Shown: in pieces, positions 2 to 37,856 of the stretch
Position numbering within the stretch: the stretch's first letter is position 1
Layout: every line of letters begins with the position of its first letter
DNA from: Spinacia oleracea
Taxonomy: Eukaryota > Streptophyta > Magnoliopsida > Caryophyllales > Amaranthaceae
NCBI RefSeq assembly: GCF_020520425.1
Contig: NC_079492.1
Coordinates: 139,070,361-139,134,360 of the forward strand
Reading direction: 5' to 3'
Length of the DNA: 64,000 nucleotides
Translations under genes and position numbers: made by a program
Notes under the pieces: generated by a model
The model's database searches: none
What the model was told of the DNA's origin: nothing
What the model saw: only the letters and a program-made list of their open reading frames with translations

Positions 2-1510
2 AGCGAATCGACTACTCGTAACACTCGGGTCCGAAGCTCGGTGCTCAGCAGGTTGAGGCCCTCGGTCCACTCAAGGTTAAGACCCTCGATCCATACGAGA
101 CTCAGGGTGGGCGAGCCAAGCAGATCTGGCGAACGACCCGAAGTCAGTAGCCGAGAGAGAAGAAGAGACAGGAGGCATGATCGAACCCCTAGCCCCCATC
201 GTACGCCCGAACGTTCTAATCACAGAACCTCGGCAAACGAAGGCATCAGGGCTAGACTCGGGAAAAGAATCATGACTCCCACGTCATCCCCTTTCTCGGA
301 CGAGCTGATCATGGAAGAAATACCGAAGGTAAGACTGCCAGCGCACCTGACCTACAGCGGAATCACAGATCCGAGGGATCATGTCATCTCCTACGAGCAG
401 CAAATGTTCTTGAGTCCCTACTCCGAAGCATGTTGGTGTAAATATTTCCCAACCACGCTAACCGGAGTGGCGGGAGAGTGGTTTAGATCGCTGCCGAAGG
501 GATCGATCAAGAGCTGGAAAAAGCTAAAAAAGAGATTCTGCACACAGTTCGTGAGCAACAATCGCCCCGAGCGAACCACAGCAGAACTGACCTCAATCCA
601 ACAAGAAAGAGACGAAAGTCTGAGAGAATTCATGGCCAGATTCATGAAGGAATCAACAAACATACCGAACTTGCAGCCAGACGTGGCCATCTTCGCCTTG
701 AAGCACGCGCTCCAGGAAGGGAAGTTCCGTGACGAACTCTCAATGAAGAACCCCTCCAGAATAGCTGACGTGCTCCAAATGGCTGATGCGTTCATCAGAA
801 CCAAAGAGTTTAACAAGGCCGCCGCAAGATTGAAGGGATCGTCGGATCCGAGAGACACAAAGAATACCCAGAGCAAGCCCGAGGGCAGCTCAAGGAAGGG
901 GAAAGAGAAAGTAGGAGCTAGAGAGATGAGCCCGAAGAAAGACGGGAGAAGGGGTGAACTTCAACCCAAGTACACCAACTACACTCCACTAGCTCTGCCC
1001 CGAAAAGAGATATTTAGCCTCAACAGAAATGACGAAAAGTGGAAACTACCTAGGAAGCTCAAGTCCAACCCAGCTCGGAGAAACAAGAACAAATGGTGCG
1101 AGTTTCATGATGACTTCGGTCACCACACCGAGGAATGCAACTCGCTGAAAGACAACATTGAGGACCTCGTTCGCCGAGGCTACCTGAAACAGTACTTGTT
1201 AGACCGAAGGGAGGAAAAAGAAAAGGCCGCAAGCGGCAAACAACACGAGCAACCCCAGAAAAGGGTCTACGAAGCAACAGGGCACAAGAAGAATGACATC
1301 CTAGTGGTGTTCGGGGGACAGAAGTCTGGCCAGGCCAGCAAAAAACACCTAAGAGCCCTCTCCCATCGGGTCAACTTCAGCGCGGTGGGAGACAACCAGC
1401 CACACCCCCCGAACATGACCTTCACTGCTGATGATTGCTTCGGAGTCCAGTACAAACATGACGATCCTCTGGTCATTTCCATGGACCTCAATAACCACAA
1501 CGTACATTGA
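2..1510 (+). CDS. gag: Retrotransposon Gag polyprotein (5' partial)
   Basis: The frame is open from base 2, so the true start lies left of the window; the GTG at 41 is not a convincing start. The N-terminal part is very Arg/Ser-rich. A Retrotrans_gag (PF03732-type) capsid segment follows, roughly bases 380-800, with motifs such as WCKYFPTTL, GVAGEWF and FMKESTNIPNL. A basic linker and a zinc-knuckle-like CEFHDDFGHHTEEC (about 1100-1140) come next, as in other Tat gags. The frame ends at a TGA (1508-1510), and pol continues in the same frame directly after it. Gag would form the particle that packages element RNA. Confidence 0.88.
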   Translation, partial: SESTTRNTRVRSSVLSRLRPSVHSRLRPSIHTRLRVGEPSRSGERPEVSSRERRRDRRHDRTPSPHRTPERSNHRTSANEGIRARLGKRIMTPTSSPFSDELIMEEIPKVRLPAHLTYSGITDPRDHVISYEQQMFLSPYSEACWCKYFPTTLTGVAGEWFRSLPKGSIKSWKKLKKRFCTQFVSNNRPERTTAELTSIQQERDESLREFMARFMKESTNIPNLQPDVAIFALKHALQEGKFRDELSMKNPSRIADVLQMADAFIRTKEFNKAAARLKGSSDPRDTKNTQSKPEGSSRKGKEKVGAREMSPKKDGRRGELQPKYTNYTPLALPRKEIFSLNRNDEKWKLPRKLKSNPARRNKNKWCEFHDDFGHHTEECNSLKDNIEDLVRRGYLKQYLLDRREEKEKAASGKQHEQPQKRVYEATGHKKNDILVVFGGQKSGQASKKHLRALSHRVNFSAVGDNQPHPPNMTFTADDCFGVQYKHDDPLVISMDLNNHNVH

Positions 1511-4500
1511 GTGTTAGTCGACGGAGGAAGTGCCGTCAATATCATCTTCAGAAACTGCTTCGAGCAGCTGATCCTCGAAGAACCAGAGGAAGCACTGACG
1601 AAAGTCAGTTATCCTCTGATCGGATTCAACGGATCCGCAGCTATCCCTCGAGGAAAGATCACCCTGCCAGTCACAGTGGGTGAAGGCCAAGCAGCAAAAA
1701 CCCTTCGGGACGAATTTTTGGTGATGGACTGCGACTCCGTATACAACGTAATCATGGGGAGAACCATGATTCACAAGATGCAAGCAGTCCCCTCCACATA
1801 CCACCAGCTGATGATATACGTCTCGGATGCAGGATTCGCCGAACGAATCAGAGGTGATCAAGAAGTGGCGAGAAGAACCTGCCACACTGCTGTCCGAAAG
1901 CCCAAACTAGGGGACGGCCCCGAGGAAGAAAAAGGAGCTACGGGAGAGGAAAGCGAGGCAAAAAGGAGAAGAGCAAGCACGAGCAGCTTGTCCCCCGCAG
2001 AAGTTGATGCCCGCCCCGAAACCCTATCTCCCGAACCAGATCAAGAAATGGAGGATATCTTCCTCGAAGAGGATTCAGACAGGAGCGTCCGAATAGGCAA
2101 GGGCCTAAGCTCAGGGCTCCGAATCGATTTGATCCGATTACTCAGGGATCATAAAGACATCTTTGCATGGTCAGCAGCAGATATGCCAGGGATAAATCCG
2201 AAGCTGATTTGTCACAAGCTGGACGTCAACGCTGAAGCTCGGCCAGTCAAGCAAAAAAAGAGGAACTACTCCTCGGAGAAAAACAAAGCCATCGCCGAGG
2301 AGGTGAAAAAGTTGCAAGAGGCCGGATTCATTGAACCATGCATGTATCCGAAATGGCTGGCCAACGTGGTGATGGTCAAAAAAGCGAACGGCTCCTGGCG
2401 AATGTGCGTGGATTTCACAGACCTGAACCGAGCCTGCCCCAAAGACTGCTATCCCCTGCCAAGGATAGATCAATTGGTTGACTCCACCAGCGGCCATGCA
2501 CTGCTCAGCTTCATGGATGCCTTTTCAGGCTACCACCAAGTATTCATGCACCCCGATGACAGAGCAAAGACAGCGTTCATCACAAGCGCAGGAGTATTCA
2601 ACTACAAAATGATGCCTTTCGGCTTGAAAAATGCCGGAGCCACCTACCAGAGGCTAGTTGATCACGTCTTCGCCGACCAGAAAGGGAGGAATGTGAAGGT
2701 CTATGTGGACGAATCCATCGTAAAAAGCATCAAGGAGGAAGACCACGTCAAAGACTTGGCAGAGACCTTCGGAAATCTGAGGAAATACAGCATGAAGCTG
2801 AACCCAAAAAAATGCGTCTTCGGGGTGAAGTCAGGGAAATTCCTCGGATTCATGGTGAGCGAAAGAGGAATTGATGCGAACCCAGACAAAGTCCAAGCGG
2901 CATTGGATTTACCCGAGCCGAAGACCAAGAGAGATGTGCAGAGGCTAACCGGCAGGTTAGCCGCACTAACAAGGTTCATATCAAAAGCCTCGGACAAGGG
3001 AGCCCCCTTCTTCAAAGCACTGAAACCAAAGAGCCTCCCCGGAGGAGAAGCAGAACCAGTCAAGAAAAAGGGGGTCCCGAGGAAAGTGGATCCCGAACTG
3101 ATATGGGAACAGGAGCAAAAAGAAGCTTTTCAGCAACTCAGAGCCCACCTAGCTCAACTGCCGACACTGGCCAGACCAAAGGAGGGGGAAACCCTGTACC
3201 TATATGTCGCAGTTAGCCCTGGAACCGTCAGCGCAGTGCTTCTTCGGGAAGAAGAAAAGAAGCAACAGCCAATCTACTTCACCAGCCGAACACTCACAGG
3301 GGCCGAAACCCGGTACCCGCTCATCGAGAAAGTCGCATATGCAGTAGTGGTAGCTGCACGAAAACTGAGGCCATACTTCGACTCCCACCAGATCACAGTG
3401 CTAACTGACCAACCGCTCGAGAAAGTACTCGACAAAATAGAGAGGTCAGGAAGATTGGCTGCCTGGGCCTTCGAACTATCAGAGTTCGGCATCAAATATC
3501 AGCCGAGGACAGCAATCAAAGCACAAGCGTTGGCCGACTTCTTGGCCGAATGCTCATACCAAGAAATGCTGGATGACACGAAAAGCACTTGGGAGGTCTT
3601 CACTGACGGATCTTCCACAGTAAACGGCTCAGGAGCAGGAGTTGTACTAATCCCCCCGACGGGGAAAAGCATAGAGTATGCATTGAAGTTCGGCTTCAAA
3701 GCAACTAACAACGAGGCCGAATATGAGGCCGCAATCGCAGGGATAGAACTTTGCTTATCCTTGGAAGCCGAGCATGTTCGCCTCAAAACTGATTCCCAGC
3801 TTGTAGCCAACCAGATCCGAGGGGAGTATGAGGCCAAATGGCCCAGCATGACAGCTTACTTAGCAAAAATTAAGTCCTTAACGTCAAAGTTAAGATCCTT
3901 TGAAGTCATTCTCATTCCCCGAGGACAAAACACGCAAGCAGATGCACTGTCAAAACTCGCAAGCTCAACACTCATCGACCTAAACAGGTCGGTCCACGTG
4001 GAAGTTCACCAAGAGAGAAGCATTGACTTGTTACCCACCACAGTATGCAGCTTACGTACCGAACCCAGCTGGATGGACGCAGTAGTTGCATACAAAGAAA
4101 GGGGAGAACTTCCCGAGGATAAGCTGCAGGCAAGAAAACTGAAAAGATTCAACAAGTGGTTCATCATCAGCGCTGAAGGAGAGCTCATGAGGAAATCATT
4201 CTCCGCTCCGCTGCTAAAATGTGTGGGTCCAACAGACGCTGATTACATCCTAAGGGCAATCCACCTCGGGATATGCGGAAACCACATCGGAGGCAGGACA
4301 TTGGCACATAAAGCCCTTCGGGCTGGGTACTGGTGGCCCACTATGGTTTCCGAGGCAAAGCAGATGGCAAGGAAATGCGGGAAATGCCAAAAGTTCGCAC
4401 CAGCCATCCATCAACCAGCTCAAACCCTACAATCAACACTGTATCCATTACCATTCGCACAGTGGGGGTTAGACATCATTGGTCCCTTCCCCTCAGCAAC

Positions 4501-5326
4501 GAACCAGAAGAAGTGGTTGATTGTAGGAGTCGACTATTTTAGCAAATGGATCGAAGCCGAAGCTGTCTCCTCCATCACCGAACCTCAGGTCCGCAAGTTC
4601 ATATGGCAGAACATCATCACAAGGTTCGGCATACCAAGACTGATGGTCTTCGACCACGGGAAACAGTTCGACAACACCCCGTTGCAAAAGTGGTGCAAAC
4701 AGTTCGGCATACACCTAGCTTACTCGGCAGTCTGCCACCCACAAAGCAACGGGCAAGCTGAAGCTGCTAACAAACTCATCCTCAATGCACTCAAGAAAAG
4801 AGTCGAGGATGACAAAAACAAGTGGGTAGAAGAGCTACCCGGAACGCTATGGTCCCTTCGGACCACCGAGAAAGAAGCTACCGGGCAAACACCGTTCCAC
4901 CTCGTATATGGATCCGAAGCTGTAATCCCTGTGGAAATCGGAACTGAAAGCCTGAGGATCCAGGCATACAACAGGTATGATGGGCTCCAAGGAGAAAGCA
5001 ACAACCAACTTCTGTCCGAAGCTCTCGATCTACTGGACGAAGCTCGGAACGATGCAAGGACGCTCAACGCAGCCTATTTGCAGAGGGTCAACAAGCATTA
5101 TAATCGAAGAGTCAACGCCAGACCCCTAAAAGTCGGTGATCTAGTGCTCAGAAACGCCGCCTCGGTTCAGAAAGGACGGATCCATGGCAAACTCTCAGCC
5201 ACTTGGGAAGGACCATACATCATCCATGCCGAAAAAAGGCCAGGCACGTTTATGCTGAAACAGTTAGATGGAACAATTCTGAAGAACCATTGGAATACCG
5301 ATGTTCTCAAGAAATATTTTGTATGA
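1511..5326 (+). CDS. pol: Retrotransposon Pol polyprotein (protease, RT, RNase H x2, integrase)
   Basis: The 1271-codon frame follows the gag TGA in phase and has no ATG at its start, so it is probably part of one gag-pol unit. The domains, numbered from 1511, are as follows. Aspartic protease: VDGGSAVN near residues 3-10, D instead of the common DTG/DSG context. RT: about 230-450, with its active site YVDE at 398-401, where the second acidic residue is Glu rather than Asp. First RNase H: about 560-690, degenerate. Second, plant-type RNase H: about 695-830, starting FTDGSS. Integrase: HHCC zinc region about 915-960 and a D,D-35-E-like core (GLDIIGP, FDHGKQF, NGQAEAA). The C-terminal part ends in a chromodomain-less tail. 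The RT change makes this copy doubtful as an active enzyme source. Confidence 0.92.
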   Translation: MLVDGGSAVNIIFRNCFEQLILEEPEEALTKVSYPLIGFNGSAAIPRGKITLPVTVGEGQAAKTLRDEFLVMDCDSVYNVIMGRTMIHKMQAVPSTYHQLMIYVSDAGFAERIRGDQEVARRTCHTAVRKPKLGDGPEEEKGATGEESEAKRRRASTSSLSPAEVDARPETLSPEPDQEMEDIFLEEDSDRSVRIGKGLSSGLRIDLIRLLRDHKDIFAWSAADMPGINPKLICHKLDVNAEARPVKQKKRNYSSEKNKAIAEEVKKLQEAGFIEPCMYPKWLANVVMVKKANGSWRMCVDFTDLNRACPKDCYPLPRIDQLVDSTSGHALLSFMDAFSGYHQVFMHPDDRAKTAFITSAGVFNYKMMPFGLKNAGATYQRLVDHVFADQKGRNVKVYVDESIVKSIKEEDHVKDLAETFGNLRKYSMKLNPKKCVFGVKSGKFLGFMVSERGIDANPDKVQAALDLPEPKTKRDVQRLTGRLAALTRFISKASDKGAPFFKALKPKSLPGGEAEPVKKKGVPRKVDPELIWEQEQKEAFQQLRAHLAQLPTLARPKEGETLYLYVAVSPGTVSAVLLREEEKKQQPIYFTSRTLTGAETRYPLIEKVAYAVVVAARKLRPYFDSHQITVLTDQPLEKVLDKIERSGRLAAWAFELSEFGIKYQPRTAIKAQALADFLAECSYQEMLDDTKSTWEVFTDGSSTVNGSGAGVVLIPPTGKSIEYALKFGFKATNNEAEYEAAIAGIELCLSLEAEHVRLKTDSQLVANQIRGEYEAKWPSMTAYLAKIKSLTSKLRSFEVILIPRGQNTQADALSKLASSTLIDLNRSVHVEVHQERSIDLLPTTVCSLRTEPSWMDAVVAYKERGELPEDKLQARKLKRFNKWFIISAEGELMRKSFSAPLLKCVGPTDADYILRAIHLGICGNHIGGRTLAHKALRAGYWWPTMVSEAKQMARKCGKCQKFAPAIHQPAQTLQSTLYPLPFAQWGLDIIGPFPSATNQKKWLIVGVDYFSKWIEAEAVSSITEPQVRKFIWQNIITRFGIPRLMVFDHGKQFDNTPLQKWCKQFGIHLAYSAVCHPQSNGQAEAANKLILNALKKRVEDDKNKWVEELPGTLWSLRTTEKEATGQTPFHLVYGSEAVIPVEIGTESLRIQAYNRYDGLQGESNNQLLSEALDLLDEARNDARTLNAAYLQRVNKHYNRRVNARPLKVGDLVLRNAASVQKGRIHGKLSATWEGPYIIHAEKRPGTFMLKQLDGTILKNHWNTDVLKKYFV

Positions 5327-6343
5327 TCTCTGTCTGTAAACCAAGTAAGTTGTTTAATGAGAAGAGGAAAGCCATTGGCACCGTGTGTTTCATTAAACTT
5401 ATCTCTATATTTATTGTCCCCTTATATATATGCAGCCTCGGATCTGATCAATCCGAGACTAAAAACAGGTTGACTTTGCCCATTCCTTGATAAAATGCAA
5501 GGAATGACCAAATCATACACTTCAGGGAATCGTCCAGAATCCTCGGATTCGCGATAACCAAATAAAACTTGTTCGCCACAAACAGTCGCTCGAATCAAGT
5601 TATAAAACTCCGGCTCAGATCCACGGATCGCCGAAGGCATAACTAAGAGGCAGACTAACGATCTCTTGCCCAGGTTTCCGAACCACAAGAGATCGGAAGA
5701 ACAATCCAGACCTCTGAGCAGATCGACGGATTTGAAGAGTCTGGAAACTAAAGAGTCTCTTAGCAGATCTACGGATTTGAAGAACTCGCAAAACTAAAGA
5801 GTCTCTTAGCAGATCCACGGATTTGAAGAACTCGCAAAACTAAAGAGTCTCTTAGCAGATCTACGGATTTGAAGAACTCGCAAAGTTAAAGAGTCTCTTA
5901 GCAGATCTACGGATTTGAAGAACTCATAAACTAAAGAGTCTCTTAGCAGATCCACGGATTTGAAGAACTCGCAAAACTAAAGAGTCCCTTAGCAAATCTA
6001 CGGATTTAAAGAGCTCGCAAGATCAAAAGGTTTTCAGCAAGTCTACGGATTCAAAGAAAAGCTCGAAAGTACAAAATTGAAAAGCAGCCAAGTAACTAAC
6101 ACTCATTTTTCATTCAATATTTGGGGGAAGTACAAATACATTGAAAACCTCAAAAATTGAAAACAAAATGAAACAGTTAAAATCGGCAGCCATCAACAGA
6201 CAATACCGGCCTACCGAAGTACTAAGAAAGCAAAAAGAAACGAGTACAACGCAGCGCCGAGGCAAAAGGGGGAAAAGCAAGCACATATTCGGAAGTCCTC
6301 AACTGGAACCGACCGACTCTGAAGAAGACGACTGCCCGAATCC
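5327..6343. other. Spacer between convergent pol and antisense gene
   Basis: No credible coding sequence. The first part, to about 5714, is unique and carries short CGGAT motifs. The middle is the 46-bp tandem array described separately. The last 270 bases are A-rich on the + strand and lead into the stop codon of the antisense gene. Both transcripts would end in this spacer. Confidence 0.7.
5715..6070 (+). repeat. 46-bp tandem repeat, about 8 copies
   Basis: Copies begin at 5715, 5761, 5807, 5853, 5899, 5944, 5990 and about 6034, each starting TAGCAGATCTACGGATTTGA or a close variant. Spacing is exactly 46 bp except for one 45-bp copy. The last copies diverge. The array lies between the 3' ends of pol and the antisense gene; tandem arrays in the 3' untranslated region are known in Tat/Ogre-type elements. 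Confidence 0.93.
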
Positions 6344-9300
6344 CTAACTCTTGGGAGTCTCAGGAGCGGCCCCTAGGGGAGCATCCTTCGAAGAACCCCC
6401 AGCAGTAGTATCACCCTCGGAAGTTGCCTTCTGGGCCCGAGCCTCTGCGAGAGCAGCTTGGCGTTCAGCTTCAGCTTCATCTCGATCAGCTTGGCATTCC
6501 ACCAAGTGGTCCTCGGCCTGCATCCATAGGGGAACTTTCTCGTTCCAAGGGAAGTGAGGCATGTGCTTCGCAAACATGCGCCGAGCACCCAGGATGCCGT
6601 TCCAGTACTGCTCTCTACACTGATCAGCAGTGTAGAGGTCGACTCGCTCCTGCTCCAACTTCCGAATATAGTCATCCTTTTCCCGAAGCTTCAGCCGAAG
6701 GACAGGCACCTTATCAGCTTGCTGCTGGATCAGCTCCCGATGCTGGACAAAATGGCAAAGCCTTAACTCTGCCTCTTTATGCTCCTTGTCGGCCGCTTCA
6801 AATTTAGACTTCATCTCCTGGAAGAGTCTATCTTTTTCCTCAAGTTCGCTAGCAAACTTAACGGCCATATCCTTCTTTTCCTCAGCAAAGGAAGCGATCT
6901 TCTCAGCATCCTCTTCAACTCGGAAGATGAGCTGGCCAACCTCGGCCCCAATCTTCTCAGCAGACTCTCTAGCCTCGCGACTATACAGAAGGTACAGCTG
7001 CTTGACTTCCGTAAGCTCGGAGAGGAGTTGCCCAGCCTTCTGGTCCAAAATGGGAATATCACGAGCATAAGCCTCACGATATTTCCTCAATTGTTTCTCC
7101 TCAACCGAGCTACACTCGGAAGCGAACGAGGACCAGAAAACAGCCTGGGAACGAGAGAAAGATGAGCAAAAATAGGAAAAACATAAAACAAAAACACAAC
7201 TCAAAGAGAAAAATCTAGCAATTACCTCGTTCAGATAGTACTGGGCCATCATAGCCGGATTCCTCTCTTCGGCCCCAGGAACCCTCCACTGCGGGTTAGC
7301 ACGAATCAGATTCTCCCGAGCAGCCTCGGGGCCCACCAAGGATCCCACATGAGCCAAGGGGCCCTCTCCCAAAATCGGAGCCCTGGCATACCGAGCCATC
7401 GCCTCCCTTACTTCTTCGGGGATCCGTTTTAGCGGAACATCCGAACAGGGATCAGCATGGATCAACCTATCCAGGGCCGAGGTAGAAGTAGAACCCAAAG
7501 TTGAGTGGCGCCTCTTCCTCGTCAGACCTTGCTCGGGCTGCTCCTCCTCTCCAGCAGAGGGAACCTCCTTCTGAACCTCGGGAACCGCAGCTTCGGGGCC
7601 CGAGAGATCTATCATCTCCTTGTCTGGACTCTTCTCTCTCTCGAAGGGAAGATCAGCAGACTCCTTCTTCTCCCCAGCTACCTCAGGGACATCCGAACCA
7701 GGAACAAAATCGGCTTCAATCGCCTCCATCACCTCGGTGATATCCTGGATTTCGATCCCCAAAGCAGCAGATGGTTTCAGTGGAGAGGGGATGATATCTT
7801 CCTCGATCAGCGGCTGGTCCACGGGCGGCGGTTCAGCAACCACCACACTCTTTAACTTCTGCCCTGGCAAGGGCATGAAGTGAAGAAGATTCTTAGGAGG
7901 AGGCATGACTTCCGAAACCGCTTCCTACATAGCAAGTGTTCAAAGATTAGTTTCGGAAAAAGGGAGAAACGAACTACAAAAAACTCCAAGTCAGAACAAA
8001 TACCTTCTCCGAGGGCTGAGAAGCCTTTGCTTTCTTCGGATGCGTGGAAGGCCTCAAAAGAGTGCTACCCTTCCTTTTGCGTTGATCCTAAAAAGGGGAG
8101 ACCAAGGGTCAACGAATGTAAAAGAAGAAAAAGGAAGAAATAGAGAAAAAAGCGTGAAGTACCCGGTTCCTAGATAAAGAGATATCTATCCGAGCCGGAG
8201 ATGAAACCGAAGGAACGGCACGCGGCACAGCGTCAGTCCCAGGACCCTAAAAGATGGTCCAGGACCAAGACGTTAGCCGACGGCCAACCGAAAAGAAGAA
8301 GACAAACAGAAAATCGAGCCTATAAATGAACACTCACCGGGTCCGAAGTTGTCTTCAACACAGGAAGCACAACCTTCACAGGAACAGCTTCAACAGAGGA
8401 GGCGGAATCCCACGGATCAGCTCGAACTTCGGATATCCGAGCAACCCCCGAAGGAGACAACACGTAATCCTTCAGGCGAGGATTACGAGGGTTATCTTTT
8501 CCGAACTTGTACTCGGGAGCCGGGTCGTGAATAGTCTTCAGATCCAAAGAAATGCCCAACTTCTTAGGATCAATGCAGCTAAAGCCGTACTCTGCAAAAA
8601 CAAAGCACAAAACATGTCAGCAAAACGAAGCAGGAAAGAGAAGGACAAACTCACTGAAAAAACGGTCTCAGCCGAAAGACACCTACCCCTGTCAAAAATC
8701 CTGCTGAGACCGGCAACAGCAAGAATGTCCTCCCTCAAAATGTAATTGAGATTCGGGAGCCAGCTAGACGGCAGTCGATGGTTATCCTCTTGAGCCAAGA
8801 ACCACTGGAGGAGGTCCACATAGTGGCGATGATTCCGATCTGGAGCTGCCACACTCCTCATATCAGGATCAGGAGCCACGAACCACTTTGGAGGACGATA
8901 AAAGTTGGGATGCTTCGGATCCGTCGGCACACGAACGAGCAACCACTCCGTCTTCCAATTGTGGTCAGAGCTAAGGTAGGGGTACGCCGTGATGTAGTTC
9001 GGATCCCCCCTCTTTCGGGACTTCTTGTTGACAATGGTCCACCAACCATACCCATCACCCTTGGAAGCATGGTTGAGAACCAGATCGTGAAGATCCCGAA
9101 AAATAGCGACAGAGCAAGGGAAATTGACGAAGTCACACACCCATCTAAATCCGATTATGTGCCTCATAGATTTGGGTGTGAGCTGGGCCAAACTAATGTT
9201 GTACGACACCAAAAGCTCGGATACGAACGGATCCAAAGGAAAGCGGAGACCATTCTCCAAATGGTGAGTGTACACGGAAATGAACCCCCTCGGTGGATGA

Positions 9301-9761
9301 GTCACCCGAGGACGCTCTTGTTCAGGAAGCTCGCACCAGTACCCCAAGGCATGCTGAATTCCGTATAGCTCCTCGGCCTTCCGATGATAATTCCCCAACT
9401 TCGCTTCCACCAACCAGTCACCGCTGACCGATTTCTCCAACGGACCGTCGATCTTGGTGGTCTCGTGCAAAATTGAGGCATACCTGCCCTTCGGATCAGC
9501 TTCCGTCCAATGAACTGGAAACTCGGGGTAACGACGACGAGCACCCGAAAAGCCAGCTCTCTCACCAGAGGTTGCGCGTTCAGACACGCCAAACCCACCA
9601 ACTACATCATCTTCGGAAGCATCCCAACCAATCGAACTCTTCTCCAACGGCCTTGCCGAAGGCCGACCCCTCGAAGTTTTCGGTAACCTCCCCGAAGGCA
9701 CGTTCTCCCTCTCACTAGAGGAGCCAACGACGAACTTGCTTTTGCCCCTATTCTTTGCCAT
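6344..9761 (-). CDS. Spliced antisense gene of the Tat element (Transposase_28-like plus coiled coil)
   Basis: Predicted join on the minus strand: 9761-8687, 8591-8338, 8246-8163, 8087-8004, 7924-7226, 7144-6344. All five introns are 75-95 bp with GT..AG ends and keep the frame, giving about 998 aa. The N-terminal third contains GLRFPLDPFVSELLVSYNIS, the motif of the Pfam family called putative gypsy type transposon (Transposase_28), known from antisense ORFs of Tat elements. Exon 4 is basic (RKRK, PKKAK) and looks like a bipartite nuclear localisation signal. Exons 5-6 are acidic, then a long Glu/Lys/Arg coiled coil with an Ala-rich tail. The function of this family is unknown. No frameshift or stop is seen, unlike in gag-pol. 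Confidence 0.8.
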
Positions 9762-10015
9762 GGTCGCGAAATCTCGATCTAGGGTTTAGATTGAGGGGTA
9801 GAAGGAAGAACGAAGAAAAAAGGAGAACTCAGAAACAAATTACCTTTTTCCGAAGCGGAATTCGCCGATAAAGCGAACAACACAAGTTCCCGAAGTCTAA
9901 AGTTGGCCGAATTTCGTAGATCTGAAGAAGCAAATTGCACTGCGATCGCCGGAATTTAGAGAGAGAATGGGTTTGAAAGAAGGGGTAAAAAGTTCGAAAA
10001 GAGCAAAGCACCCAG

Positions 10016-10023
10016 TATTTATA
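10016..10023 (-). promoter_or_regulatory. TATA box for the antisense gene
   Basis: TATAAATA on the minus strand lies 255 bp upstream of the antisense ATG (9761) and inside the element, just before the 3' LTR. Spacing suits a 5' UTR of about 220 nt. It implies that the antisense gene has its own internal promoter rather than using an LTR. This is inferred from position only. Confidence 0.5.
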
Positions 10024-10199
10024 GAAAAGAAAAAGGGGCGCATCAACTTCCTCAACCCACGATCTCCACGACACAATACAACTCCCAACACTTGTCATCA
10101 ATGCAAATCATCCCTTTTCAAAAAAGAGAGGGAACTTTCGGACTTCTGACAGCTGGAAACCCACCCATTTAATTCTAAATGGACCGGGTCTGGGGGGCA

Positions 10200-10628
10200 T
10201 GTTGTTTGGGCTCCCAATTGATTCTCAATTGGGCCACTAAGTCCAAAGCCCAATGGCTCTAAACAAACAGCATCAAACCCACCAATGGCTAGTCAGCCAT
10301 CCATCAAGGCCCAAGGCCCAAAAGCAATAAATGACCTATGGGCATTTATTATGCAAACACTATAAATAGGCCGCCAAGGCTCACACCTCAAGGTACGTCC
10401 AATTTATCGCCTTAAGACTACTCTTCTAGAGAACTTCTCTCTAGAATCCGAGCATCGTTCTTACTTAGGCATCGGAGGGGCTTTCCTCGGAAACACCCCC
10501 GAGGCTAGTGACTTTGCTCTTGTGCAGGTGAATTCGGACTCTACTCATTCAAACAAGCAAGATCTTCAACACATACAAAAGGGCCTTCATTCGAAGCCCA
10601 TTGTTTCCATCTTTACAACACCGGAACA
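10200..10628 (+). repeat. 3' LTR of the Tat element
   Basis: A G-rich tract (GGTCTGGGGGGCA) ends at 10199. The LTR then starts TGTTGTTTGG and ends CCGGAACA (10628), with TGTT/AACA termini, 429 bp. The end is supported by the second element at 37.4 kb, whose LTR also ends CCGGAACA and is followed there by a primer-binding-like ATTGGCGC. Both LTRs share CTTACTTAGGCATCGGAGGG and a CCCCGAGGCTAGT block in the R/U5 part. The base after the LTR begins host flank. Confidence 0.8.
10361..10368 (+). promoter_or_regulatory. LTR TATA box
   Basis: TATAAATA lies about 160 bp into the LTR. In the complete 5' LTR the same site would drive the genomic RNA. The shared CTTACTTAGG block about 100 bp downstream then falls in R/U5. 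Confidence 0.6.
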
Positions 10629-13698: not shown

Positions 13699-15871
13699 TT
13701 AAGTCTGAGCTCGAACCAGAGGAGACATAGGTGAGTGTGGTGACCCAAGTTGCGAAACACCCATCAAATCCTCCAACCTTCTAGAAGATAATCTAAGCTG
13801 AAGGTTAGTTTGCCAACACTTCCTCTTTGCCGAACCAACAGGCTTCGCAACCTTTTGAGCTGCGAAAGTTCTAATCCTTTTTAAAGCAACCTGCATTGTT
13901 TCATCATCCATATTAGCAATACAAACCCTGAACCACCCTGGTTCATGGCAATGGAACGAACACCCTGGTGAAACGTTAATCTTGACGTCGTTAATAATCA
14001 CCCTCCACAAAGCTAACTCACCCTCCATTGTTAGATCTTGCTCAATCAATGGACGTAAATTCATCCATACAAATAAACCAGCATTACTTTTCAAGCATTG
14101 GATTCCAACTTGACTAAGTCCCCATGTGAAAACATTGTGTCTTGTTTCAAGCCTTTTACTACTTTCGACCAAGAATTTCTCAACAAACACCTCATCAGAC
14201 AACATCGAGGCTATTAACATCTGGGTTTGGGTCGAAACCAGCCCGAAACTCGACATCTTCCTAGCAACGTTTACAACCTTATCGTTGTAGGAGTACACTA
14301 TCCCGACCCGAAACCCGGGGAAACCCAAGTCTTTTGAGAGGCTGTACACGATGTGTATGAGTTCTGGGTTGTGTTCTTGTTCGAGCATGACCTCTGATAT
14401 GCTAACAAAAGTTGGGTACCCGAAAACAGTTGCACCATATATCTCATCACATACTAAATGAATGTTTTTCTCAGTGATGAAAGATAATATGCTTTTTAAG
14501 GTATCTTTGTCTAGGACTGTTCCTAGTGGGTTTGAAGGGTTGGTTATAAGTACACCTTTTACTTTAATGTTGGCTTCTTTAGCTTTCTCATATGCTTCTT
14601 CCAAGGATTTTCTTGTTACTTTGAAGTTATTTGAGCTATGGCATTCAACTGGGAAGAGTTCTACCCCTGTTCTCCACCTCAAATCTCGATCAAATCTGCA
14701 AATTAAATAAAACACTATTTAGTTTATATAATTATTTCAACTTAGTATCATAAATACAACACGCGTAATTAATGACATATTCTCTTTAGTTACAGGACCA
14801 TCCATTAATTACTTGATTTGAGAAAGGGACCTTAAGGCGTAAAATATTAATAATTGGACCGTTCAGTTACTGGAGAGAATCCTGATCTATACTAGTGTTT
14901 GACTAGTAGTACGTGTTTGGAATAATAATAATATTGTTTAATACAAAGTCAAAGAGTATATATATACGTACCCAGGATAGTAAGGTGTAGGAACCAAGAA
15001 AGCTTCACCAGGGTTAGCCAAGCAAAATGCCATAAGTTCATGGGCTCCAGTAGCTCCACCACTCATAACTATGCGATCAGGATCGAATGTCACCTTGTAA
15101 CCTCTCACTCTCTCCATGAAACTTGCTACAGCCTGTTAAATTTCAATTTATTCCAATAATTAGCCGCAATTTAATTAACCATAAACATAAATTTGACATG
15201 AACTAGAATAATATATGCTTTATATAGGGCTGCTATTTTCAGTCAAAGTGTGACGTGGAATAACACATAATAATATGTTGTGAGCTACTCGAGATCGACT
15301 CAGTCAATTAAACTCAACTCGAGTCAAAACAAAATGTAAAAAGACTCGAGTTGAGCTGATTAAACTTCGAGCTCAACTCAATACCACCATTTTATAGTAA
15401 TAGATTGACCATTGGTGAGATTTTTTTTTTTTTTGTTTGTTTTTACTAAAATTAATTAGTTGATAAAAAGTCGAGGAAATTACATTTCTGAACGCTGGCA
15501 AACCATGGTAATCCTGAAAGATGGCAATATCTTTGAAGTGATCCACTCCTTCAACAGTACAAATAGAAGCAGCTGGGTTTTTCAGAATCCACTCTTTCAC
15601 CAAATCAAAGCTTAGCTGCAAAAACAATAAATAATGTTAACAATCAAAATTATTGACAAAAATTAAAGTTGCCAATTAATTAGATGATTAATTAAGAGAG
15701 TGATTAGCAAATAATCACCTGATTTTCAGCAAGACCCATCTGAATCACACCAGTGGGATTAGTGGCAGGGTGAAAAGGGTCATTTTCATAGGCTTTCCAG
15801 CCATCAAAATAGGCAGATTCTTCACCATGCCCATTTCCTGCTGCAATCCTTGACAACAATTCAGCCACCAT
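13699..15871 (-). CDS. ACS: 1-aminocyclopropane-1-carboxylate synthase, type 1
   Basis: This PLP enzyme converts S-adenosylmethionine to ACC, the committed step of ethylene synthesis, in the cytosol. Predicted join on the minus strand: 15871-15719, 15615-15484, 15132-14972, 14695-13699. All junctions are GT..AG and in phase, giving 480 aa, the normal family length. Visible signatures are GLAENQ at the end of exon 1, [15 protein letters not shown] and PTPYYPG in exon 3, and the PLP-lysine motif [14 protein letters not shown] with Lys near residue 270. The C-terminus ends [14 protein letters not shown] with Ser-Pro at about 467, 470 and 473. This is the MAPK (MPK3/6) phosphorylation tail of type-1 isozymes like Arabidopsis ACS2/ACS6, so the protein is probably stabilised by stress kinases. 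Which paralogue it is cannot be settled here. Confidence 0.96.
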
Positions 15872-34168: not shown

Positions 34169-35199
34169 TCATAAATCGTGATTAAGATTGTCCGCTAATA
34201 TGTGCATGTGTTCCTCCAAACTCCTGCTGGCGCCGCTTATCGTCCCTCCGTGGACTGGGCCGCCAGAGATCACATACACGGGTGGTTTTTTCCCGTTATC
34301 CCTTTGTTCTGCTCTGGCACTGGTTTTCGGTTGTCTTTGTTCAATTCTGGGTGGCTGATATGGTTGTTCGATTCTGGGATATTGATGTTGACTTTGCTGT
34401 TGTTGTTGCCGGTATGAATTGGCAGGGTTTCCTCCTACCGAGTTGTTGTTACTATTTCCTTGTCTCGCCCTATACTGCGAAAAATACCCCTTTCTGACCA
34501 TGTCCTCAATGTTGTCTTTGAGGTCTCTGCAGTCCTCTGTGAGGTGGCCTTCTCCAACCGTCCATTTTGTTGTTTATGTTGTAAATTGCCGTCCGCGGTG
34601 TGTTCAACGGAGTGTAATTATCAAAGAGTCCTCTTGACTCCCTTCTATCTTGCCGGGGTCTCTGCCCCTGGGGATTGGCATTTCTATTGCTCTGGTTTTT
34701 CTGGCTTTCCCCTTGCTGATTGTTATTCTGGTGAAAATTGTTTCCTCCTCTTCCCGCCTGAGGGTTGCTATAGTTTGGATTGTACCCGACACTTCCGCCG
34801 GTTGCCACTGTTACACTGGAGATCTTCATCATTTCATCCCCTCTGATGTACTCATTTGCCTTGTGTAGGACATCGCCCAGATTAGTGTATGATTTCCGGC
34901 TGAGGTACTTCTTGAATTCACACTCTTGCATTCCCCTCATCAAAGCCAGAACCGCAACCTCCTGTTGTAGGTTGGGGATAGTGATTGATTCGTTATTGAA
35001 GCGGGTGAGATAGTCTCTTAACGGTTCTCTATCTCTTTGAGCAAACGACATTAACTCTCCTGGCGATTTCTTTCTCTTCTGCTTGCTCACAAAGCGTGAC
35101 AAAAATGCCGCTTGTAGTTGCCTAAAGCTGTAAATGGACTGAGCCTCTATGCCCTTATACCAGCTCGCTGCGACTCCTAAGAGTGTGGATGGGAACACT

Positions 35200-36585
35200 T
35201 GATATGTGCGTTTTATATAGTGTTTCACCCCCGTCCCTTAGTACTTTTTATGTGTCAAACGTGCTCTTAGGAGCCGTTTCTAGTACTAATGTGTGTTATT
35301 GAGTGTGCCTTGAGTTTCAGGTTTGATTATGAGAAATTGGTCTTTTTAGACCCGTTTCATGTTGATCTAGGCCACTATATGAGCCCGAGGAAGTTCGGGA
35401 CCTTCACCGTCGACTTTCGGGAGCCTTGGATGCTTACGGTTGAGCCCCGGGAGTTAGACTCGGTGATATGGGCGAGTTATATTGAAGATTGCAAATCGCC
35501 CTGGAAGCTGAGGGCGAAATGCAACCATCAGGCAGTTTAGGAGCAAATAAAACTCATCAACGCGCGCCCGATCGGGCGCTGCTCGCCCGATCCGGATCGG
35601 GCGGTCATCCTGGAGCTTATGTGGAGAGTTTGCAATCCGCCCGATCTGGCGGATTTTGGCCCGATCGGGCCGACTATCGAGTGGATCGCCCGATCGGGCG
35701 ACGCCAACCTCCTGCATTTATGCGCGAGTTTTCTTTCCGGTTTTTGGCTTGTATTTTGGGCAAACTATAAATACTAGCCCCTTATATTTTTAGAGGCACC
35801 TTATTTTCTAGTATTGAACCTTAGTATTATTTCCCTTAGCCTAGTTTTCTCTCTAATTTATGCAAAAACACTTGGTTTAATTCTCAATAAAAATTCAAGC
35901 TTTCACTTCCCTTTGTTCTTCAAATAGGTATTGTTTCTTATTTTAATTCTTTGTCTTGCTTTAATAATGCTTTCAATTATGATTATTGCTTTGTTTATTG
36001 TCAACATGCTTGAGTAGTTTAATTTCTAGGGTTGGGGATCCATGAATAATATGAAGGGATGATTGAATGATTATGATTCTTGGCATTGTAATTGATTCCT
36101 ATTGATTGGTTTATTTCACTATACAATTAGATTTGCGCAGGTTTAATTGTGGTAGTTATGCAATATCAAATTAAGATTCGAGAGATGCAATTTGATGTTT
36201 AGGCTTGTGTCAATAGGTGGAATTAGAGTTAATACGTAGCGAGAGCCCGTTAATTCTAAGTCTATGATTAGTATCGACTTGAGAGAGCATGCTAGTCTAA
36301 TTAATTACTTTGTTGATTATCGTGATTGTTCAATGTCCTGGATTATTATTTGTTGGCGAACCTATGCCCTAGATTCCTTAGTATATTGATTCATTCTTGT
36401 TTAATTATCGTTCGTAGTCTTAGCATACAAACCACCAACCAACTCTTGTTCACAATAGTCTAGAGTAATTAATTGATAGTAGAAAGAACGCCTGTTTCCC
36501 TGTAGATTCGATCCTGACTTCCCTTGCTACCTAGCTAGTGGACCTTAGGTTATTTTTTATTAGGTGATACGACTTTAGCCTGTCA
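35200..36585 (+). repeat. Solo LTR inserted in the gag pseudogene, TSD ACACT
   Basis: The insert starts TGATATGTGCGTTTTATATA and ends GATACGACTTTAGCCTGTCA, 1386 bp. It is flanked by a perfect 5-bp duplication ACACT (35195-35199 and 36586-36590), and the gag sequence on the two sides joins without other loss. No internal coding region remains, so this is a solo LTR left by LTR-LTR recombination. Its family is not identified; the length and the GAGAGAGCATG-type text near the 3' end resemble large Ty3/gypsy LTRs. Open frames inside it (35289-35540, 35489-35770) are not considered genes. Orientation is uncertain. Confidence 0.9.
35565..35700. repeat. Cluster of GC-rich perfect palindromes (CCCGATCGGG core)
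   Basis: Within the solo LTR: CGCCCGATCGGGCG at 35565-35578 and 35687-35700, the 20-bp CGCCCGATCCGGATCGGGCG at 35584-35603 and GGCCCGATCGGGCC at 35658-35671. One imperfect copy lies near 35634-35650. All are self-complementary and CpG-rich in an otherwise AT-rich region. Confidence 0.95.
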
Positions 36586-37382
36586 ACACTTTGCACCACA
36601 TGGCGTCAGAATCTGTGTACAGCATCATGTGTTGTTCAAAGGTGGTCCAGTGATCCTCCGGATCCGTCGTGCCATTGTATTTCCCTGTCGGGATTTTTAT
36701 CTTTTCCATCCTTTCTTCTAGGATTTCTCGGCACAGGGGAGAGTCCTTTAGCTGGATTGTCTGCCGCCTAGGTATCTGTAGTACCGGCCCTCTACGCTCA
36801 TACTCCGAGATGGGGTGTTGTTCTACTTCCGGCCGCTCATTTTCTTGTGGGTCCGGGCGTTTTCTTTTTTCTGTTGTGTTTTCTTGATTGAGGGAGGATA
36901 GGAGGTCTCTAACAGGCAGGTGGGGATTTGCCGACTTGGTCTTTCTAAGACTGCCGACTGAGCCTGGTTGCTGGGTGGCGGGTAATTCCGACAAAGCGGT
37001 CATTACTGCCGACAGTGTTTTTAACTGTTCTCCCGTGAATATTTCCGACAGGGGAGACAGGTGCTCCTGCAGCGTCTGCTCTAGGGGTGTTGTTGGTTGT
37101 GTCCTGATAGGGCTTTCTATTTCTAGTTCGTCATCATCTTCTACTGTGAAATCCTTTTGTGCCGGTATAGGTATGTTTCTTATCACTGGGCTTATGATTG
37201 GTTGTGCTTGTATGGGGTTCATTAGGTTTACGGGTGAGAGCTGAGATTTGGCGATTCCCGCTGACTGAGAAGTTGTCGCTTTTTCCTGATTTTTCTTTGA
37301 CTTTTTACTGTCTTTGAGTGAGAGATCCATGCTAATTGTTTTACCGTTGATAGGGATGAGGTCCCCCCCTTCTAGCGCCAAT

Positions 37383-37856
37383 TGTTCCGGGTGTGGAATG
37401 AGAACAGCTGACTGTGGGATACTGGATTCCTGTTGAGAGTGCCGGTTGATATCTGCACAACAGAATGGATTAACTAGCCTCGGGGGTGGTTCGAGGATCC
37501 CCCCTCCGATGCCTAAGTAAGATTATTGAGGGATTAAGAAGTGATTAAGAGATAATCAAAGAGTAAGAAAGAAGTGTGTTTAAGTGTTTTTGTACCTCAT
37601 AGCAATAAATGATGTGCTCCTTATATAGACCAATCCAAGGGTACGGTCAAGTGGGTCCCTTGTGGTGGGATAGCGACATGTTGACAGTGACTCCTGGTTG
37701 ATCGTTGGTTGGCCGTCCTCTTTATAATGCCGGTAAGGTATTTCAAATGTGCCGGTAGGTGTTGTTTACCTAAGATGACCAGATTACCTGCAGGTTAAAG
37801 TTTACTTACGGGGAGTTCTGCCGGTATCTAATAGTGCCGGTAGGACACCCCGTACA
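37383..37856 (-). repeat. 5' LTR of the second Tat-type element
   Basis: On the minus strand the LTR begins TGTACGGGGTGTCC (37856) and ends CCGGAACA (37383), 474 bp. It is followed at once by ATTGGCGCTAGAAGG, a primer-binding-site-like sequence, and 50 bp later by the gag ATG. It contains a TATATAAGG TATA box and the CTTACTTAGGCATCGGAGGG block shared with the LTR at 10200-10628. The outer boundary is less certain than the inner one. Confidence 0.7.

What the first reader, a model, noticed from the sequence alone, without database searches (positions are those of the whole stretch)
6344..9761. Retrotransposon antisense gene that needs five introns: six exons, about 998 aa, perfect phase
Two long antisense ORFs (407 and 520 codons) are in fact outer parts of one gene. 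Canonical GT..AG introns of 95, 91, 75, 79 and 81 bp join them through two exons of 84 bp each. Every junction keeps the frame and no stop remains. Antisense ORFs in Tat elements are known (Transposase_28 type), but such an intron-rich structure carried within an LTR element matters: the sense genomic RNA cannot splice these introns, so they survive retrotransposition. The gene is intact while gag-pol is damaged. Exon 4 adds an NLS-like basic stretch and exons 5-6 a long coiled coil, which suggests a nuclear partner or regulatory role.
Basis: partly seen in the sequence, partly recalled or inferred. Interest (0 to 1): 0.8.

Follow-up and report, generated by a model that had tools for sequence, protein, structure and literature searches.

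The report
Spliced antisense gene inside a retrotransposon
A plant jumping element carries, on its opposite strand, an intron-rich gene with its own promoter-like signal, and comparison of many copies shows that this gene is maintained in the spliced reading frame.

Summary
On the minus strand, 9761 to 6344, six exons joined by GT..AG introns of 95, 91, 75, 79 and 81 nt encode 998 aa without a stop. Strictly four introns are needed; intron 5 is in frame and open, but varies like an intron. The held host genome (894 Mb, probably spinach) settles most doubt. In 39 same-family sequences, shared variants fall 27/19/81 on codon positions of the spliced frame but 58/27/42 unspliced. Three other families, about 30% identical over exon 1, have intron 1 at the same place and phase and vary most at third positions of the spliced frame. 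A boundary pattern finds 446 intron-bearing sites; three spliced-junction patterns find none. Antisense Transposase_28 ORFs of Retand elements are known; I found no multi-intron model in the papers I could see. Transcription and function are not shown. I read it as a nuclear accessory gene whose introns survive copying because the genomic RNA carries only their complement.

The parts
8687..9761 (-). Exon 1: start codon and Transposase_28 domain (aa 163-225); ends in phase 1, after the first base (G) of a split codon
   Evidence: PF04195 E 9.5e-10, 39 bits over cut-off 26.2
8592..8686 (-). Intron 1 (95 nt, GTAGGT..TTGCAG); same position and phase in families A, B, C
8338..8591 (-). Exon 2 (254 nt)
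8247..8337 (-). Intron 2 (91 nt)
8163..8246 (-). Exon 3 (84 nt, phase 0/0; weakest evidence of the six)
   Evidence: shared variants 1/1/1; missed by the crude gene finder
8088..8162 (-). Intron 3 (75 nt)
   Evidence: 446 boundary matches genome-wide
8004..8087 (-). Exon 4 (84 nt, phase 0/0), basic NLS-like stretch RKRK...PKKAK
   Evidence: (shared variants 2/0/2)
7925..8003 (-). Intron 4 (79 nt)
7226..7924 (-). Exon 5 (699 nt), linker rich in acidic residues and proline (by eye) with a second basic patch RKRR
   Evidence: no Pfam match
7145..7225 (-). Intron 5 (81 nt, in frame and open; varies like an intron)
6344..7144 (-). Exon 6 (801 nt incl. stop): long helix / coiled coil
   Evidence: helix residues 2-143 and 148-194 of the exon, mean pLDDT 73
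10015..10026 (-). Minus-strand TATA box TTCTATAAATAC (TATAAA begins at 10023, 262 nt before the ATG)
   Evidence: 38 of 39 sequences identical (window included, L071 dropped), 1 with one change that leaves TATAAATA whole
9779..9843 (-). Leader (5' UTR) intron candidate, 65 nt, GTAATT..CCCTAG, 46% T
   Evidence: GT in 40 of 40 sequences, AG in 39 of 40
6109..6114 (-). AATGAA, possible poly(A) signal 229 nt after the stop codon
   Evidence: weak motif, not tested further
5712..6020 (.). 46-bp tandem array, 6.8 copies, between pol and the antisense gene
278..1507 (+). gag part of the sense ORF (PF03732); 278 is the start of the piece searched, not a mapped start codon
1511..5326 (+). pol: RT, RNase H, aRH-type RVT_3, integrase (1271 codons open)
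10200..10628 (+). 3' LTR, approximate (TG..CA by eye; the 5' LTR lies outside the window, so the ends are not confirmed by pairing)

Best explanation
This is one protein-coding gene carried antisense between pol and the 3' LTR of a Retand-type (Tat, Ty3/gypsy) LTR retrotransposon. It has a TATA box just inside the 3' LTR, a leader with one intron, five coding introns, and encodes about 998 aa: a Transposase_28 domain, a basic NLS-like exon and a C-terminal coiled coil. SHOWN by sequence: the gene structure, conservation of splice sites and of the spliced frame, purifying selection, the same intron 1 in four families, and no intron-less copy found with three junction patterns. INFERRED: RNA polymerase II transcribes it from its own promoter; the host spliceosome removes the introns; the sense genomic RNA carries only the complement of the splice sites and therefore passes the introns unchanged through reverse transcription; the protein enters the nucleus, dimerises by the coiled coil and binds DNA or chromatin to regulate the element's own expression or a nuclear step of its cycle, as proposed for other Retand antisense proteins. 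Confidence: spliced protein-coding gene about 0.92; nuclear regulatory role about 0.45. The number below is for the gene model and its maintenance.
For: Model and T-rich introns. Chain length far beyond shuffles and other stretches. Among the window copy and 39 fetched copies, 39 of 40 keep all five GT..AG pairs, the exception (L071) being broken off midway; 24 of 40 have the whole ORF intact. Shared variants (minor allele in 3 or more copies; L071 dropped) 27/19/81 by codon position, p 2e-12, dN/dS about 0.23, introns 36 of 421 sites, about the third-position rate of 81 of 999 (site totals); the excess holds from minor-allele cut 2 to 8 and is lost in the unspliced frame. Families A, B, C: the third position is the most changed in each of the 13 exons modelled, least clearly in exon 3 of B (113/98/174) and exon 5 of C (13/9/16); splice dinucleotides kept 51 of 54, 34 of 36, 24 of 24. 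Intron 1 same place and phase in all four. TATA and leader intron conserved. 446 intron-bearing boundaries, 0 spliced junctions for E1|E2, E3|E4, E5|E6. Domain. Nuclear location and own promoter of the Grande counterpart: PMC7264820, passages.
Against: No RNA was examined. Exons 3 and 4 have little direct support from variation (1/1/1 and 2/0/2), and a crude gene finder trained on this family itself merged introns 2 and 3, skipping exon 3. Intron 5 is not needed for an open frame. The copies were the 40 best-scored of 766 candidates, biased to young intact ones. Private variants also show some constraint (dN/dS about 0.49), which purely new neutral mutations should not, so 'private' here includes inherited changes. 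A boundary control was run for one of the three junction patterns only. DNA binding and nuclear entry are untested here: the single-sequence fold of exon 1 failed (pLDDT 39.5) and no solved structure matches. Neumann 2019 found Transposase_28 in only 23% of Retand elements (PMC6317226, passages), against 97% of clusters in Vicient 2025.
Confidence: 0.9

Rival explanations
1. The antisense region makes two or more separate proteins from unspliced ORFs (a Transposase_28 ORF and a coiled-coil ORF), as ORF-based surveys draw it, and the GT..AG stretches are not spliced.
For: Two long ORFs exist (415 and 526 codons stop to stop); the published survey with ORF Finder counts 104 antisense ORFs in its representative elements as separate items (PMC11963269).
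Against: Exon 2 lies for the most part, and exons 3 and 4 wholly, outside both long frames, yet exon 2 has 1/1/6 shared variants, and the short middle exons of families A-C change most at third positions of the spliced frame. The unspliced frame loses the periodicity. Introns vary at about the third-position rate and change length freely. One TATA-type match was found before exon 1; the stretch before exon 5 was not scanned for a promoter.
Confidence: 0.05
2. The antisense RNA acts as RNA: it pairs with the genomic RNA, feeds siRNA production or interferes with sense transcription; the protein is secondary.
For: Antisense transcription across the element would give double-stranded RNA; the authors of PMC7264820 raise this possibility (passages).
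Against: An RNA-only role does not predict dN/dS 0.23, codon periodicity carried through the introns, or a shared intron phase across families. Both roles can coexist.
Confidence: 0.15
3. A host gene with its introns was captured recently by this one family, by chance in antisense.
For: The structure looks like a host gene: TATA, leader intron, T-rich introns.
Against: Three other families in the same genome carry it, at 28-32% identity in exon 1, with intron 1 in the same place; PF04195 passes its cut-off at the 150 places scored of 2698 candidates. Antisense Transposase_28 is reported in 97% of recently active Retand clusters across flowering plants (PMC11963269). Capture, if any, is ancient.
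Confidence: 0.04
4. A decaying remnant: once a gene, now only inherited with the element and no longer used.
For: 16 of 40 copies are not intact.
Against: Constraint on shared variants, that is, largely on changes passed on by copying; 24 of 40 intact. Selection acted until recently.
Confidence: 0.06

Closest known systems
Antisense Transposase_28 (TRP28) ORFs of Retand elements, incl. cluster 'Spinacia oleracea 1' (Vicient 2025, PMC11963269, parts 1-3 of 5 read)
   Same: Position between pol and 3' LTR, antisense, PF04195, one tandem array; listed LTR 425 bp and POL-3'LTR 4,850 bp against about 429 and 4,873 here, so probably the same family (inference)
   Different: The survey used ORF Finder; a term search of the paper finds 'intron' 0 times and 'splicing' 0 times. 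The gene model with introns, the leader intron, the TATA and the selection test are not in the text I read
Grande gene23 (maize; Gomez-Orte 2013, not held; known to me through PMC7264820 passages)
   Same: Antisense accessory gene between pol and 3' LTR, own promoter upstream, nuclear protein
   Different: 'intron' occurs 0 times in PMC7264820; the original paper could not be read, so introns there cannot be excluded
ORF2 of common bean Ty3-gypsy elements such as pvRetro13 (PMC4093653, passages)
   Same: Opposite orientation, some with an SMC domain match, 15 families
   Different: Structures were predicted with FGENESH and GENSCAN, which can place introns, but the text has 0 occurrences of intron and exon; no junctions in the passages seen
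HBZ of HTLV-1 (PMC1459196, abstract)
   Same: Retroviral antisense gene, spliced and polyadenylated, regulates transcription
   Different: Starts in the 3' LTR, bZIP protein (recalled), unrelated; here the TATA lies outside the LTR and there are five coding introns plus a leader intron candidate
Ogre elements (Tat clade) with an intron in the sense RNA (seen only as titles in the reference list of PMC6317226)
   Same: Intron-bearing LTR retrotransposon of the same clade
   Different: Sense intron (recalled: between the protease and RT parts), partially spliced by its title; antisense introns need no such arrangement

Membership tests
Retand lineage (Tat clade, Ty3/gypsy) | aRH domain between RNase H and integrase (shared with Ogre) | tested here: met
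   RT_RNaseH in 2501-3598, RVT_3 (PF13456) then integrase zinc-binding and rve in 3599-5326; criterion from PMC6317226 passages
Retand lineage (Tat clade, Ty3/gypsy) | Antisense ORF with Transposase_28 between pol and 3' LTR | tested here: met
   39 bits over cut-off 26.2
Retand lineage (Tat clade, Ty3/gypsy) | Long POL-3'LTR region (2.9-6.6 kb) | tested here: met
   5327 to 10199, 4,873 bp, by coordinates; LTR start by eye
Retand lineage (Tat clade, Ty3/gypsy) | Grouping with Retand in an RT tree | not tested
   no reference RT sequences were loaded
Retand lineage (Tat clade, Ty3/gypsy) | PBS type, paired LTRs, target site duplication | not tested
   the 5' end of the element lies outside the window and was not fetched
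Transposase_28 (PF04195) | Match to the profile over its cut-off | tested here: met
   for the window; all 6 members of A1 match at E <= 10, best 2.4e-16
Spliced antisense accessory gene of the HBZ kind (as a way of working, not kinship) | Antisense RNA spliced and polyadenylated | not testable with these tools
   no RNA data at hand
Spliced antisense accessory gene of the HBZ kind (as a way of working, not kinship) | Promoter inside the 3' LTR | tested here: not met
   the TATA box is at 10023, internal to the 3' LTR start at about 10200; start site itself unknown
Plant mobile domain protein (PF10536), frequent in the sister clade Ogre | Match to PF10536 | tested here: not met
   no match listed up to E 10 in the 6 members (HMMER filters drop most weak ones)

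The most novel reading that the evidence does not exclude
The antisense ORFs catalogued one by one in Retand elements are exons of a single ancient, intron-rich gene of host type, taken up as DNA before the Retand families separated. It can only exist in antisense, where the element's genomic RNA hides its introns, and it encodes a chromatin-directed nuclear factor. In two sister families its N-terminus (MARIKQTAN, MARTKKTAN) mimics the histone H3 tail (MARTKQTAR), which would let the protein engage or be modified by H3-tail readers and writers that decide silencing of the element.
Probability: 0.2. Interest if true: 0.85.

Novelty: new variant of a known kind. Interest (0 to 1): 0.62.

Why it matters
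Retrotransposons are expected to lose introns when they copy through RNA. Here a gene with five or six introns is kept in hundreds of copies, and the likely reason is orientation. If transcripts confirm it, the separate antisense ORFs reported in this widespread plant lineage may prove to be exons of one protein with a DNA-binding candidate domain at one end and a coiled coil at the other, and the long unknown function of these proteins can be tested on the full product. Searching for intron-less copies also gives a simple test of whether the antisense mRNA is ever reverse transcribed.

Tried and rejected
Processed (intron-less) copies: a 388-nt spliced DNA query gave, in the list shown, only exon-by-exon hits, but just 40 of 534 candidates were scored and the list was cut, so I turned to junction patterns with up to 3 mismatches over the whole genome: E5|E6 0, E3|E4 0, E1|E2 0, with the exon 3|intron 3 boundary as positive control, 446. 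No boundary control was run for E1|E2 and E5|E6, and E2|E3 and E4|E5 were not searched as patterns.

Relatives outside this genome: viral contigs with the exon 1 protein (1 stretch, none confirmed) and with alignment A1 (40 stretches, none), genome contigs with A1 (9 stretches, none). So nothing on other plants comes from my own data.

Structure: the last 240 residues of exon 1 alone, without an alignment, gave mean pLDDT 39.5; no fold search was made. PDB by profile: three chains at E 1.4-1.7, no relative. Exon 6 alone gave a long helix, no search made. Heptad periodicity is strong in aa 743-870 but weak in 861-930 (65 of 500 shuffles as strong).

A crude gene finder placed doubtful introns inside exon 1 of many loci and merged introns 2 and 3 in the window; I used it only as a pointer and set the models of L017, L028 and L023 by hand. 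A first model on L027 had 31 stops and was replaced by L028, which has one stop. Of the 30 loci, 28 entered (L011 and L019 left out); members used after cuts on divergence and coverage: 9 of 12, 6 of 10, 3 of 3. L014, used, fell out under the tighter cut. Whether the family A-C loci lie inside LTR elements, antisense to pol, was not checked. TATA-type motifs were not consistent in the 11 loci of families A-C printed.

Considered and rejected: chance ORFs; constraint from a sense-strand gene (longest sense ORF in the stretch 236 codons stop to stop); recent host-gene capture.
Full report
WHAT WAS CHECKED. Exons run 9761-8687, 8591-8338, 8246-8163, 8087-8004, 7924-7226 and 7144-6344 on the minus strand and encode 998 aa without a stop. 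Introns are 44-57% T and 8-18% A, exons 17-30% T, as expected of plant introns (recalled). Reading through introns 2, 3 and 4 meets stops; reading through intron 1 shifts the frame; intron 5 is in frame and open. So four introns are strictly needed.

IS IT MORE THAN CHANCE. With at most five introns of 60-120 nt the antisense strand allows 1042 codons. The maximum was 562 in 100 dinucleotide shuffles, 414 in 30 other stretches of this window and 509 on the sense strand of the same stretch.

THE HOST GENOME. The window lies in an assembly of 894 Mb in 242 contigs. The six contigs C1-C6 are 115 to 189 Mb long; with the element's match in size to the published cluster 'Spinacia oleracea 1' (LTR 425, POL-3'LTR 4,850; PMC11963269) I infer spinach; no call names it. 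Exon 1 had 766 first-look candidates, 40 of which were scored. I fetched about 4.2 kb around the antisense gene for the 39 other than the window's own, not whole elements.

SELECTION ON THE SPLICED FRAME. Of 40 sequences including the window's, 39 keep all five GT..AG pairs; L071 is broken off midway. 24 of 40 have the whole six-exon ORF intact. With L071 dropped, variants shared by at least three copies fall 27, 19 and 81 on codon positions 1, 2 and 3 (p 2e-12); 41 changes are nonsynonymous where 86.5 were expected, dN/dS about 0.23; introns have 36 such sites in 421, about the rate of third positions. Per exon: 8/5/26, 1/1/6, 1/1/1, 2/0/2, 10/5/16, 5/7/30. Exons 3 and 4 are thus not individually supported by variation. 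The third-position excess holds for minor-allele cuts of 2, 3, 5 and 8, and the counts turn into 58/27/42 if the frame is carried straight through the introns. Private variants give 87/94/155 and dN/dS about 0.49. Intron lengths vary freely; intron 5 is 81 nt in 34 of 39 sequences, would break the frame in 4 of 39 if retained, and its nine shared variants fall 5/2/2, without third-position excess.

OTHER FAMILIES. A genome search with PF04195 scored 150 of 2698 candidates, all over the cut-off; 30 loci of about 3.2 kb were fetched. I sorted 28 of them into three families, here called A, B and C; the five members aligned are 28-32% identical to the window over exon 1. In the loci printed, exon 1 ends at the same place: eight residues from the conserved Gly of 'GL', then the first base of a split codon: window GLSRIFDR, A GLNHRYPK, B GLCSYLSR, C GLDHGLDQ, each followed by G|GT. 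Intron 1 lengths differ (window 95; 129 in A, 69 in B member L027, 73 in C). With hand-set models, the third position is the most changed in each of 13 exons (4 in A, 4 in B, 5 in C), least clearly in exon 3 of B (113/98/174) and exon 5 of C (13/9/16). Splice dinucleotides are kept 51 of 54 (A, 9 of 12 members used), 34 of 36 (B, 6 of 10) and 24 of 24 (C, 3 of 3). Each family has a Lys/Arg-rich stretch in a middle exon and a phase-0 intron before a charged last exon (by eye). A shared intron at one split codon in four families this far apart is best explained by inheritance of the intron with the gene.

INTRONS SURVIVE COPYING. A 32-nt pattern across the exon 3|intron 3 boundary matches 446 places with up to 3 mismatches. 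Spliced junction patterns match none: E5|E6, E3|E4, E1|E2. So no intron-less copy of the antisense mRNA was found.

PROMOTER AND ENDS. The minus strand has TTCTATAAATAC at 10026-10015, identical in 38 of 39 sequences (L071 dropped), 262 nt before the start codon and about 175 nt inside the 3' LTR start. A 65-nt, T-rich leader intron candidate lies at 9843-9779, with GT in 40 of 40 and AG in 39 of 40 sequences. The leader from about 32 nt after TATA has no ATG before the start codon. In the 11 loci of families B and C found by a start-codon pattern, TATGCAG (10) or TATACAG (1) stands six nucleotides before the ATG, like an acceptor; that it is one is inferred. A possible poly(A) signal AATGAA is at 6114.

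THE PROTEIN. Transposase_28 at aa 163-225 (E 9.5e-10) is the only Pfam match of the whole protein; exons 5 and 6 alone have none. Basic clusters: RKRK at 474-477 and PKKAK at 488-492 in exon 4, RKRR at 635-638 in exon 5. Exon 6 has heptad periodicity over aa 801-860 (0 of 500 shuffles as strong), weaker at 743-800 (9 of 500) and not clear at 861-930 (65 of 500), and folds alone into long helices. Exon 1 could not be folded.

THE ELEMENT. The sense side has gag (PF03732) up to 1507, an in-frame stop at 1508-1510, and pol open from 1511 to 5326 with RT, RNase H, an aRH-type RVT_3 and integrase. That order fits Ogre and Retand of flowering plants (PMC6317226, passages), and the antisense Transposase_28 points to Retand. 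A 46-bp tandem array lies at 5712-6020.

WHAT IS KNOWN. Vicient 2025 (parts 1-3 of 5 read) found at least one antisense ORF in each representative element and TRP28 in 97% of clusters, with ORF Finder; the words intron and splicing do not occur. Neumann 2019 gives Transposase_28 in 23% of Retand elements (passages). The review PMC7264820 (passages) reports that Grande gene23 is transcribed from its own promoter and its protein is nuclear, and asks that antisense and spliced transcripts be looked for. The bean study PMC4093653 (passages) used gene finders that can place introns but the words intron and exon do not occur. Among the papers listed by my searches I saw none, by title and abstract start, on a multi-intron antisense gene in a plant LTR retrotransposon. 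Gomez-Orte 2013 and the Ogre splicing paper are not held, nor is the DOI that I recalled for Steinbauerova 2011, so a description there cannot be excluded.

JUDGEMENT. The antisense gene as such is a new member of a known kind. Its architecture, five coding introns and a leader intron candidate, with intron 1 shared by four families and the spliced frame kept by selection, is a variant I could not find in print. Function stays inferred.

Noticed in passing
L023, L031 (2 of 4 family C loci); L024-L029, L032-L034 (9 of 11 family B loci), start codon at about 996-1106 of the gene-oriented loci: The antisense proteins of families B and C begin close to MAR[IT][RK][QK]TAN, up to 7 of 9 residues as in histone H3 (MARTKQTAR, recalled). 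Of 6987 ATG-led 9-mers in the window and all held loci (both strands), 8 reach 6 or more matches, and all 8 have these start sequences. The search pattern itself asked for MA and R. The window family and family A do not have it. Mimicry or chance is open.
   Followed up: partly
window 8163-8246, 8004-8087, 7145-7225: Exons 3 and 4 are each 84 nt with phase 0 on both sides and intron 5 is in frame, so skipping or retention would all keep the reading frame: the gene could give several protein forms.
   Followed up: no
window 5712-6020: 46-bp tandem array of 6.8 copies downstream of the antisense gene's stop codon and beyond its possible poly(A) signal.
   Followed up: no
window 34506-35237 and 36575-37522, minus strand: Two gag-like open stretches, probably parts of other LTR retrotransposons (by eye, no family search made).
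   Followed up: no
window 13699-14718, minus strand: Open stretch resembling part of a 1-aminocyclopropane-1-carboxylate synthase, a host gene (by eye, recalled motifs).
   Followed up: no
G000, 46 places counted: A possible subfamily of the same antisense gene, with one difference just inside intron 3; its loci could not be cut out, so it was not compared.
   Followed up: no
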